NCBI GenBank assembly: GCA_026397235.1
Contig: JAPLVG010000013.1
Location: 1-32,473 of the forward strand
Origin: Candidatus Berkelbacteria bacterium
Lineage (GTDB): Bacteria > Patescibacteriota > UBA1384 > XYA2-FULL-43-10 > CAINNR01
Reading direction: 5' to 3'
DNA: 32,473 nucleotides
A model generated the notes under the pieces. It had not been told where the DNA came from. It saw only the letters and a list, made by a program, of their open reading frames with translations, and made no database searches. Of the stretch, positions 3,933 to 7,122 are shown one piece after another. How positions within the stretch are numbered: position 1 is the stretch's first letter; every line of letters starts with the position of its first letter. A program made the position numbers and the translations under genes.

Positions 3933-4110
3933 ATAATTTCTAGGAAAATCCCAGTTGCTATTAATTTTAATTTTTGGCATTTACAACAAAATTACAAATG
4001 ATGTATTATTAATTCAGTTGTTGTATACTTAAAATAATCATTTCAGAGATCGTGTTTTCAGGTAGCTAAGGAGGGAATATTAAGTTAGGCGGGAACCAAA
4101 AAATCTTAAA

Positions 4111-4157
4111 TCGAGTTCGAAGTTCCGAACTCGAGAGAGAGAGAGAGAGAGAGAGAG
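4111..4157 (+). repeat. Hairpin-(GA)12 element upstream of the DGR target gene
   Basis: TCGAGTTCG (4111-4119) pairs perfectly with CGAACTCGA (4126-4134) across a 6-nt loop. The right arm runs into a 25-nt tract (GA)12G at 4133-4157. The same stem and tract recur inside the RT gene at 6386-6434. In the untranslated leader its length could affect folding of the RNA or spacing to the terminator at 4211. See the matching finding. Confidence 0.85.
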
Positions 4158-4210
4158 TAAAAGACTCTCCGATTTCGTGTCTAAGCTTAAATACAGAGCA
4201 AATAATTTAA

Positions 4211-4233
4211 GCGCCCTTTTAGGGTGTTTTTTT
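4211..4233 (+). terminator. Terminator or attenuator in the target-gene leader
   Basis: GCGCCC (4211-4216) pairs with GGGTGT (4222-4227), two of the six pairs being G-U, followed by T7. It lies 53 nt before the target ATG and after the (GA)12 element. It either ends an upstream transcript or attenuates transcription into the DGR. Confidence 0.55.
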
Positions 4234-4286
4234 AGTATTAATAATTTAGCAAATGATACATCAGCAAATGTAAATTGGAGGCAAAT

Positions 4287-5129
4287 ATGAAAAACAAGAG
4301 CAAGCTCTTCATTATAGTTGCGGCAGTCTTGCTGTGCGCCGGCAGTTTCGGGGCTTATAAAGTTTTTGCCGAACAATCCGGCAGTACTCCGGAATCAAAC
4401 GCAACTTCGCGGATAAAAACACTCTATACAGATCTGACAAGTTTAACATATGGCTCCGATACCGACACGCCCGACTGGGGAGCTTATTGGAACCGCATCA
4501 AGACCGCTGCCAAATGGGTGCCTACTGGTAATGTTGCAGTTGGAGATGTTCGCTCGGGCAAAACATTTTATAACGCTAATCGCAGCGTTCAAACCGGTAA
4601 CTGGTCGCCGGCTTCCGGCAGTCCCTGCCCAACTCAGCAGTACTATGATGGGCACGCTTCAGCTACGCAGGGGAACAACTGTTCTCTAACCTGGACGACC
4701 AATCCCGCTCCGGTTGCAGGCGACGACAACCACGCAGGCAATACCAACAAAGATCCGCTGACTGGTTTAACCTGGAGTCAATACCTTAAGAATAATGCGG
4801 GAGTCATACAATTTGTTTCATCGTCCGGATCTTCCTGGACTTGGGACGCGAGCGGAGCAGCTAATGTAGCCGTTGGGAATAAAACTGCCGCACAGCTTTG
4901 TAATAGCAGCGCCAATCCTGCCGGTGCAGGCGTTTGGAGATTGCCAACCGAAAAGGAATTGATGCAGGCCTATATTGACGGTGCCTTTTGGAATCTGACG
5001 CAGCCATCTTACTATTACTGGTCATTGACGGAGTACTATAGCACGCTCGCGTACAACGTGTACCTGAATGACGGCACCACGAACTACAGTAGTAAGACGA
5101 ATGGCTACTCTGTTCGTTGTGTCCGGTAA
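4287..5129 (+). CDS. DGR target: secreted DUF1566/C-type-lectin-like variable protein
   Basis: The 280-residue protein starts at ATG 4287, five nt after GGAGG; an upstream TTG in frame overlaps that ribosome site and is not the start. Residues 1-28 form a Sec signal peptide ending in KVFA, so the protein is exported. Residues 82-106 resemble the 'GDVRSGKTFY' linker found in tail- and surface-type proteins. Residues 155-280 match the DUF1566/Lcl fold (TGLTWSQYL, WRLPTEKEL, closing SVRCVR), a known form of the C-type-lectin-like scaffold used by DGR targets. The VR encodes residues 243-280. Eleven residues are diversified: 243, 250, 251, 254, 259, 264, 267, 268, 269, 274 and 275; all are Asn in the template, and six are Tyr here. 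It is probably a surface binder whose ligand changes. Confidence 0.9.
   Translation: MKNKSKLFIIVAAVLLCAGSFGAYKVFAEQSGSTPESNATSRIKTLYTDLTSLTYGSDTDTPDWGAYWNRIKTAAKWVPTGNVAVGDVRSGKTFYNANRSVQTGNWSPASGSPCPTQQYYDGHASATQGNNCSLTWTTNPAPVAGDDNHAGNTNKDPLTGLTWSQYLKNNAGVIQFVSSSGSSWTWDASGAANVAVGNKTAAQLCNSSANPAGAGVWRLPTEKELMQAYIDGAFWNLTQPSYYYWSLTEYYSTLAYNVYLNDGTTNYSSKTNGYSVRCVR
5012..5126 (+). repeat. DGR variable repeat (VR)
   Basis: This 115-nt stretch aligns without gaps to the TR at 5856-5970. I count 13 differences, at 5013, 5034, 5037, 5046, 5047, 5061, 5077, 5085, 5089, 5092, 5106, 5109 and 5110; every one is an A in the TR. None of the 73 non-A template positions differs. The next base differs the other way (T here, C in the TR), making the TAA stop and marking the boundary of the initiation-of-homing region. 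The last 15 shared bases carry no substitutions. Confidence 0.97.
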
Positions 5130-5159
5130 CGCTGGGTGATTAATAATTTGATTATTTTC

Positions 5160-5188: not shown

Positions 5189-5536
5189 ATGGCCAGATAT
5201 GAGCATTTACCAATCTACAAAAGCGTTTATGACATCAATTTATACTTTTTCCGCTTAGCTAGAGGATTTCCGAAAGATTACAAATATGGATTAGCACAGG
5301 AAATTGAAGGTTTGCTTACCGAATTGATGGACATTATCGTTGAAGCCAACAACATAGAAGACAAAACCAATAAATTAAAGGAGGGCTTAGTAGCGATTGA
5401 GAGAATTAAGTTCAAGGCCAGGATGCTGCATGATTTGAAGGCAATGAATATAAAGAGTTACAAGTTTTTCTTCGAGCAGCTGATTGAAATATCAAAGCAG
5501 TTCGAAAAATGGCTGAGTTGGTCAAAAGCACATTAA
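5189..5536 (+). CDS. avd: Accessory variability determinant (Avd), four-helix-bundle protein
   Basis: This 115-residue, highly charged, all-helical protein lies between the VR and the template RNA, the usual place of avd. Its text (YKSVYDINLYFF, LAQEIEGLLTELMDIIVEAN, then ERIKFKARMLHDLKAM) fits the Avd/23S-intervening-sequence four-helix family, and the size fits too. Avd forms a basic pentamer that binds the DGR RNA and the RT and is needed for mutagenic cDNA synthesis. No clear ribosome site precedes ATG 5189, so it may depend on translation of the target gene 60 nt upstream. It is intact, unlike the RT. Confidence 0.88.
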   Translation: MARYEHLPIYKSVYDINLYFFRLARGFPKDYKYGLAQEIEGLLTELMDIIVEANNIEDKTNKLKEGLVAIERIKFKARMLHDLKAMNIKSYKFFFEQLIEISKQFEKWLSWSKAH

Positions 5537-5855: not shown

Positions 5856-5970
5856 CAATTACTGGTCATTGACGGAGAACAATAGCACGAACGCGTACAA
5901 CGTGAACCTGAATGACGGCAACACGAACAACAATAATAAGACGAATGGCAACAATGTTCGTTGTGTCCGG
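5856..5970 (+). repeat. DGR template repeat (TR)
   Basis: This 115-nt copy has 42 adenines, grouped as AAC and AAT codons that would read as Asn in the VR frame. Such codons are typical of TRs because adenine mutation there reaches many amino acids without creating stops. It is followed by C at 5971 where the VR has T, then by a short shared AACG. It lies about 75 nt before the RT start, in the same orientation. Confidence 0.97.
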
Positions 5971-6006
5971 CAACGGGGATGCCTTTTCTGCCTAAAATAA
6001 AGATAG

Positions 6007-6044: not shown

Positions 6045-7122
6045 ATGGAAACATACTTTACTTACGAAAATTTATATAAAGCTTATCTAGATTGCCGAAA
6101 AAGAAAATCGATGAGTTTTTACGCCATGAAGTTTGCTGAAAATTTAGAGGAAAATTTGCTAATGCTTGAAAAACAATTACAAAATCGAACCTATCGTCCA
6201 GGCAGCTCAATTGCTTTCATCGTTGAGAAGCCAAAAATTCGAGAGATTTTCGCTGCCGATTTTCGCGACAGGGTTGTCCACCATCTTTTATATAATTACC
6301 TATCACCGATTTTCGAAAAATCTTTCATTTACGATTCTTGGGCTTGCCGAAAAGGCAAGGGAACGCACAAAGCGATGCTTCGGCTTCGAGGGTTCGCGGG
6401 CGAACTCGAGAGAGAGAGAGAGAGAGAGAGAGAGCATGACGCGCCAAAATTTCTACCTCAAAATGGATATTAAAAGCTTTTTTACCAGCATAGACCAGCG
6501 GATTTTGTATGGTTTGGTGACAAAAAGGATTAAAAACAAGGAAATCTTGTGGCTGACCGAAGTTATTATTTTTCACGATTGTGTCAGAGACGCTGCGCCG
6601 AAAGTGCAAAGCCAACCGAGCTTATTTGCCAAATTACCTGTGGATAAGTCATTATTTACTGCCAAAAAAGGAAAAGGATTGCCAATTGGCAATTTGACCA
6701 GTCAGTTTTTCGCCAATGTTTATATGAATGAGATTGATCAGTTTGCAAAGCACAGCTTGAAAGCCAAGTATTATATCCGTTATGTCGACGACTTTCTGAT
6801 TTTAGATACAAATGTTAAAAATCTGGAAAGGTGTCGAGATAAAATTACCGCATTTGCGCGTGAAAAATTAGAGTTAAGAGTTCACCCTGGCAAACAATTC
6901 ATTAGAGAGATTAATACTGGAATTGATTTTGTCGGATACATTGTTCGCGCTGATTACACCTTGATAAGAAAAAGAATTGTCGGCGAATGGAGGAGAAAGA
7001 TGGAGCGAACAGAAAATCCTGAGAAGAAGCAAATAATATTTGATTCGTATATGGCTCACAGCATTTGGGCCAATGCTTTCGGGCTAAGTCAAAAAATGGC
7101 TAATTTCGCAAAAATTTCATGA
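6045..7122 (+). CDS. DGR reverse transcriptase, reading frame broken at a (GA)13 tract
   Basis: The N-terminal part (6045 to about 6434) starts METYFTYENLYKAYLDCRKR and holds 'PKIREIFAADFRDRVVHHLL' and 'RKGKGTHKA'. The C-terminal part, in the +1 phase up to 7122, holds 'YLKMDIKSFF', the DGR-type motif IGNLTSQ (in place of the usual QGxxxSP) and the catalytic YVDDF. Together they make one RT of about 359 residues. The two frames meet only at the GA tract 6408-6434; as read, frame one ends at 6473. One more GA unit, or two fewer, would fuse them. An ATG at 6436 just after the tract could restart the second part. The enzyme should copy the TR RNA into adenine-mutated cDNA for the VR. It is either phase-variably off, decayed, or misassembled. 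Confidence 0.92.
6386..6434 (+). repeat. Hairpin-(GA)13 element inside the RT gene
   Basis: TCGA (6386-6389) and GTTCG (6392-6396), separated by a GG bulge, pair with CGAACTCGA (6401-6409). A 27-nt (GA)13G tract follows at 6408-6434. In the first frame it encodes Glu-Arg repeats between the conserved 'GTHKA' and 'YLKMDIK' blocks, where other DGR RTs have only a short variable loop. Its stem matches the element at 4111-4157. Confidence 0.9.

What the first reader, a model, noticed from the sequence alone, without database searches (positions are those of the whole stretch)
6386..6436. RT reading frame broken exactly at a (GA)13 tract: possible phase-variable DGR switch
Seen: conserved RT blocks on both sides of the tract lie in different frames, and the frame changes only here. 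One extra GA unit or two fewer (11, 14 or 17 units) restores a single RT of about 359 residues. Known: dinucleotide tracts in coding DNA slip at high rates and drive phase variation. Inference: hypermutation of the target could be switched on in a minority of cells and shut off afterwards. I know of no described DGR controlled this way.
Basis: partly seen in the sequence, partly recalled or inferred. Interest (0 to 1): 0.9.

Follow-up and report, generated by a model that had tools for sequence, protein, structure and literature searches.

The report
Slippage switch in protein-diversifying retroelements
In these tiny bacteria the gene machinery that deliberately hypermutates a surface protein appears to be turned on and off at random by a stuttering DNA repeat inside its own genes, and the same arrangement recurs across their relatives with different repeats, which seems not to have been described.

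Summary
The window holds a genuine diversity-generating retroelement (DGR): Lcl_C-domain target, bAvd-family gene, TR/VR pair (12 of 13 mismatches at TR adenines) and an RT whose two open, conserved halves change frame only at (GA)13.

It is not a one-off. The genome has three (GA)>=7 tracts, all in DGR parts: this RT, the target's leader, and a second DGR RT, also out of frame. Relatives carry the tract at the same RT loop, in frame. In other Patescibacteria and two DPANN archaea the tract is (G)n, (GT)n or (CCTGT)n, mostly just after the start codon of avd. Of 57 phased tracts, 16 are in frame, consistent with the one third expected at random. Enrichment over flanks is about 10-fold (p=1e-13); 80 viral DGR RTs and 21 from other bacteria have none.

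Best explanation: slipped-strand phase variation of the DGR itself, a reversible switch on a hypermutator. Slippage within a population is not shown; read-level tract lengths would decide. I found no description in the literature I could search.

The parts
6045..6407 (+). RT gene, 5' half (ATG 6045), open up to the tract
   Evidence: 70-75% identical to in-frame relatives, dN 0.18-0.22
6386..6407 (+). imperfect stem-loop directly 5' of the tract (TCGAGGGTTCG / cggg / CGAACTC)
   Evidence: sequence; perfect versions abut 10 of 39 GA tracts, 0.2 expected
6408..6433 (+). (GA)13 tract, the only place where the RT frame changes; proposed slippage switch
6436..7122 (+). RT gene, 3' half in another frame, with LKMDIKSFF, IGNLTSQ and YVDDF motifs
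   Evidence: RVT_1 hit 2e-14 on the ORF that holds this half
5858..5975 (+). template repeat (TR)
5014..5131 (+). variable repeat (VR) at the 3' end of the target gene; 12 of 13 differences from TR are at TR adenines
4287..5129 (+). DGR target protein gene (Lcl_C domain)
   Evidence: PF07603, 6.6e-14
5189..5536 (+). avd gene (bAvd family), intact, no tract
   Evidence: PF22296, 6.8e-12
4113..4132 (+). perfect 7-bp stem-loop in the target leader (GAGTTCG / CGAACTC)
4133..4157 (+). second GA tract, (GA)12, in the leader of the target gene
   Evidence: the same leader occurs before a large surface-protein gene in two relatives
4209..4239 (+). terminator-like hairpin with T run between the leader tract and the target start

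Best explanation
This is a DGR whose own machinery is a contingency locus. The (GA)n tract lies in a loop of the RT that tolerates extra residues. It gains or loses units by slipped-strand mispairing, so about one length in three gives a full RT and the rest give a truncated one. Cells drift reversibly between a hypermutating state, in which adenine-directed retrohoming rewrites the VR of the target, and a locked state in which the current VR is inherited faithfully. In related DGRs the same job is done by a tract in another RT loop, or by a tract just after the start codon of avd, with G/C, GT/AC or pentanucleotide units as well as GA. Shown here: tracts, frames, positions, conservation, TR/VR signature, enrichment. 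Inferred: that lengths change within populations, that out of frame means no retrohoming, and that selection keeps the tract for switching.
For: Both RT halves are open and conserved, with no other lesion, and as constrained as in-frame relatives. All three (GA)>=7 tracts of the genome are in DGR parts, including a second out-of-frame RT. Same RT position in three relatives, in frame. 22 of 28 TC(GA)7 tracts in the class are in or beside a DGR RT, and 7 of 8 tracts outside the class are in or near DGR genes. Units of 1, 2 and 5 bases sit at recurrent places in RT or avd. In frame 6/25 in RT and 10/32 in avd. About 10-fold enrichment over flanks, p=1.2e-13; 0 of 80 viral DGR RTs. Most of the loci have TR/VR pairs with mismatches nearly all at adenine. 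Both RT positions are loops in the model.
Against: No read-level or within-species evidence of length change. Start codons of avd are inferred. Lengths of long tracts in short-read assemblies may be off. About 20 of 47 Patescibacterial or unnamed bacterial loci in the sample lack a tract. The sample is the best 80 hits, not a random one. Retrohoming by any of these systems has not been tested.
Confidence: 0.85

Rival explanations
1. Expression-level recoding: transcriptional or ribosomal slippage at the tract makes a steady low level of full RT or Avd from an out-of-frame gene, and DNA tract length is not a switch.
For: Most assembled alleles are out of frame (41 of 57). Stem-loops often sit next to GA tracts, and repeats are slippery templates.
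Against: Both wrong frames occur, as well as the right one, so one programmed shift would not suffice. A pentanucleotide tract is a poor recoding site. In avd the tract is a few codons after the start, a usual place for DNA-level phase variation.
Confidence: 0.07
2. Assembly or sequencing error in tract length: the RT is always in frame in the cells and the tract is not variable.
For: Repeats of 26 bases or more can be miscounted, and an error would also give about one third in frame. The second RT breaks across two contigs.
Against: Error cannot create the tracts, their repeated placement in RT or avd, or their near absence elsewhere. Poly-G tracts of 9-10 and several independent projects show the same pattern. 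Frame-sensitive hypermutable repeats inside genes are themselves the mark of contingency loci.
Confidence: 0.04
3. The RT is a dying gene that was disrupted by tract expansion.
For: It is out of frame, and a third RT in the same genome does carry an in-frame stop.
Against: No other lesion in either half; dN to in-frame relatives is no higher than between them. The VR carries an adenine-only signature. The same state recurs in many genomes at the random-phase ratio.
Confidence: 0.02
4. The hairpin-plus-GA is a small mobile or self-spreading element that happens to land in DGR genes.
For: Perfect stems abut 10 of 39 GA tracts (p=1e-14). The tract occurs in leaders and RTs, and in both orientations relative to the RT (L058, L065).
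Against: Most GA tracts lack a perfect stem, other lineages use unrelated units, and the stem sequences differ. At most it explains how some GA tracts arose.
Confidence: 0.02

Closest known systems
Patescibacterial diversity-generating retroelements (DGR clade 2 of Roux et al. 2021, PMC8144416)
   Same: RT with DGR fold and motifs, Avd, TR/VR with adenine-specific differences, C-terminal VR in a surface-type target.
   Different: RT or avd carries a slippable repeat that puts the gene out of frame in about two thirds of assemblies; the survey text mentions no such feature and required RTs of 250-550 residues, so split RTs would tend to be missed.
Simple-sequence-repeat phase variation (contingency loci) of Neisseria, Campylobacter and Haemophilus (for example PMC8437040, PMC5084427)
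   Same: Poly-G or short tandem repeats in a coding region, often just after the start codon, with random phase among genomes.
   Different: The usual products are surface or modification enzymes; here the switched product is the enzyme system that itself hypermutates a gene.
Bordetella phage BPP-1 DGR (prototype; from general knowledge, with PMC10053308)
   Same: Same components and adenine-directed retrohoming logic.
   Different: I know of no tract in brt or avd; 80 viral DGR RT loci scanned here have none.
Phase-variable mutator genes (mismatch-repair genes inactivated by repeat-tract changes; from general knowledge)
   Same: Reversible tract changes toggle mutability.
   Different: Those alter genome-wide mutation rate; here only the VR would be affected.

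Membership tests
Diversity-generating retroelement | RT of DGR type | tested here: met
   RVT_1, SQ-type motif 4 IGNLTSQ; the model of a related RT matches DGR RT 8ub7 best (E 3e-24)
Diversity-generating retroelement | TR/VR pair with adenine-specific mismatches | tested here: met
   12 of 13 mismatches at TR A
Diversity-generating retroelement | VR in the 3' end of a target gene, Avd gene nearby | tested here: met
   Lcl_C target and bAvd
Diversity-generating retroelement | Mutagenic retrohoming activity | not testable with these tools
   needs an experiment
Simple-sequence-repeat phase variation | Hypermutable tract inside a gene whose unit changes shift the frame | tested here: met
   (GA)13 in RT, frame changes only there
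Simple-sequence-repeat phase variation | Coding potential kept on both sides and in both phases across relatives | tested here: met
Simple-sequence-repeat phase variation | Tract length varies within a population or strain | not testable with these tools
   one genome per species held and no reads; no near-identical pair usable
Simple-sequence-repeat phase variation | Frame change alters the phenotype (here, VR retrohoming) | not testable with these tools
   needs an experiment

The most novel reading that the evidence does not exclude
Across Patescibacteria, and in some DPANN archaea, targeted hypermutation is itself under a stochastic, reversible genetic switch that evolved repeatedly, hitting whichever essential DGR gene (RT or Avd) and using whichever repeat was at hand. 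In some lineages, including this one, a further tract with an attenuator-like leader also switches expression of the diversified target or its neighbour.
Probability: 0.65. Interest if true: 0.93.

Novelty: new variant of a known kind. Interest (0 to 1): 0.9.

Why it matters
How cells limit a machine that rewrites their own surface proteins is, as far as I know, an open question for DGRs. A slippage switch is a simple answer that needs no regulator: bursts of diversification in a minority, then faithful inheritance of the variant that works. It would explain how bacteria with tiny genomes control DGRs, and it can be tested at once in existing metagenome reads. It also implies that DGR surveys that require an intact RT gene undercount them, and that split RT or avd genes should not be discarded as pseudogenes.

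Tried and rejected
Rfam search of the locus gave nothing. I first suspected that the hairpin-plus-GA was an insertion element; a perfect stem abuts only 10 of 39 GA tracts. I first took tracts at the RT 5' end as RT switches; translating the other strand showed that they lie inside the divergent avd gene. Folding 32-40 nt on either side of GA tracts gave no strong overall bias (mean z about -0.5), so hairpins are a subset feature. I looked for near-identical loci in two genomes to compare tract lengths within a species; none was usable. The C23/C27 contig break in the second RT is not simply explained by tract-length branching, since the 141-base overlap starts after the tract. One match (L081, a methyltransferase, GA8) and two leader-like copies (L073, L074) are not DGR-linked.

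Full report
Observation. The window contains a complete DGR on the + strand: target gene (4287-5129, Lcl_C domain), avd (5189-5536, bAvd family), TR (5858-5975) and RT. TR and VR differ at 13 of 118 positions, 12 of them at TR adenines. The RT is open in one frame from ATG 6045 to the tract and in another from 6436 to 7122; the change of frame is exactly at (GA)13, 6408-6433.

Not a one-off in this genome. The host genome (G000, 925 kb, 28 contigs) has only three (GA)>=7 tracts. One is in this RT; one (4133-4157) is in the leader of the target gene; the third, (GA)19, lies in another DGR RT split over contigs C23 and C27, where again the two conserved halves are in different frames. That second DGR has its own TR/VR pair with 6 of 6 mismatches at adenine. 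A third RT (C20) has no tract but an in-frame stop, which is what ordinary decay looks like.

Class and phylum. In 55 genomes of the class, TC(GA)7 occurs 28 times in 17 genomes; 22 of the 28 are inside or right beside a DGR RT gene and 4 are in leaders next to DGR targets or a surface-protein gene that neighbours the DGR. In 380 genomes of the phylum, 8 tracts of TC(GA)8 were found outside the class and 7 of them are again in or near DGR genes. In RT the tract sits mainly in one of two loops. Position A, as in the window, is between a helix and the strand carrying LKMDIKSFF; position B is just before IGNLTSQ. On a confident model of a related RT (mean pLDDT 94; best solved match the DGR RT 8ub7) both are loops.

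Phase. Of 18 RT-internal tracts in the class search, 4 are in frame and 14 are not. With seven more (L076, L079, L123, L142, L149, L164, L189) the count is 6 of 25; the frames of L076 and L079 were read from alignment coordinates. Both halves are open on either side. The window RT (out of frame) is as constrained as its in-frame relatives: dN 0.18-0.32 to them, against 0.27-0.32 between them, with dS of 2 or more or saturated.

Other repeats, other gene. A scan of 80 named RT loci from GTDB genomes and of the class loci showed that GA is only one version. Many other Patescibacteria carry (G)9-13 at a nearly fixed distance 5' of the RT core, and single loci carry (CCTGT)9 or (GT)8. Translation of the opposite strand showed that these tracts lie within the first codons of the divergent avd gene. 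An automated test found 32 such loci: 10 have an ATG in the avd frame upstream of the tract and 22 do not; 21 of those 22 have an ATG within 25 codons in another frame. Avd is reported as essential to retrohoming (PMC10053308), so either gene could be the switch. Four more loci have GA just after the apparent RT start, one of them in frame on my reading. Leaving those four out, the in-frame fraction is 16 of 57, p=0.48 against one third.

Enrichment and controls. In the 80 named loci, slippable tracts other than A/T runs number 29 in 93.5 kb of RT/avd-start windows against 14 in 476 kb of flanks, p=1.2e-13. By my sorting of record titles, 27 of 47 Patescibacterial or unnamed bacterial loci, 2 of 12 DPANN and 0 of 21 other bacterial loci have a tract; 0 of 80 viral DGR RTs do. 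On an RT tree the tract types are scattered: 25 parsimony changes between tract and none, of which at least 6 are forced by well-supported branches, so repeated gain or loss is likely. The tree rests on few columns. Poly-G tracts also occur elsewhere in these genomes (39 in the class, 2 of them at avd), so poly-G alone is not diagnostic, whereas GA tracts of this kind are almost DGR-specific.

Element anatomy. In the window's class many GA tracts follow a perfect stem-loop whose 3' arm ends at the first GA (10 of 39, 0.2 expected). The window's RT copy has an imperfect version and the target leader a perfect one. The leader also shares an AGGAGGGA motif and a terminator-like hairpin with leaders of a large surface-protein gene in two relatives, which suggests a second, expression-level use of the tract. 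This is a lead only.

Mechanism. I judge slipped-strand phase variation of the DGR most likely (0.85). Established: tracts, frames, positions, conservation, DGR identity, enrichment, recurrence. Inferred: length change in populations, loss of retrohoming when out of frame, benefit from switching. Recoding during expression is the main rival; it is disfavoured because all frame offsets and units of 1, 2 and 5 bases occur. Miscounting in assembly could corrupt individual lengths but cannot create the tracts or their distribution.

Literature. Searches combining DGR terms with phase variation, homopolymer, slipped-strand and related repeat terms, frameshift, microsatellite and candidate phyla turned up no description of a phase-variable DGR. 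The DGR survey and the papers I checked do not mention it. The library is open-access only, and the main CPR DGR paper (Paul et al. 2017) was not held, so novelty is probable rather than proven.

Noticed in passing
L110, L053, L056, L061, L063 (RT linker before IGNLTSQ): A QLxLF-like motif (SQSQLGLFDC, GQLQLFDF, IQLGLFDF, TQIGLFDF, RLQLFDL) recurs in the RT, also in one RT without a tract; it resembles the bacterial sliding-clamp binding motif and could be a link to replication.
   Followed up: partly
4050-4240 in the window; L054 and L060 around 1380-1640: Conserved leader with AGGAGGGA, stem-loop, (GA)n, CTCTCCGG-like stretch and terminator before the DGR target here and before a large FN3-type gene in two relatives; it looks like an attenuator whose tract length might matter.
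   Followed up: partly
L073 and L074 around 1500 (G031): Two copies of another leader with (GA)9 before genes not linked to a DGR.
   Followed up: no
L133 6044-6053 and L138 6199-6207 (Omnitrophota): Poly-G tracts inside what look like DNA methyltransferase genes next to DGRs, a usual phase-variation target.
   Followed up: no
L181 2267-2276; L161 1543-1566; L196 3074-3084: Tracts in a DGR target gene, in a target leader (Thiobacillus) and near the C-terminus of an avd gene: slippable repeats may touch other DGR parts and other phyla.
   Followed up: no
G000:C20 about 63700-64550 (L045): A third DGR of the same genome with two VRs (all mismatches at A) whose RT has an in-frame TGA near the start and no tract.
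   Followed up: partly
L142 and L149 (Pacearchaeota): Poly-G10 inside the RT at position B in two archaeal DGR-type RTs, one out of frame and one in frame.
   Followed up: partly
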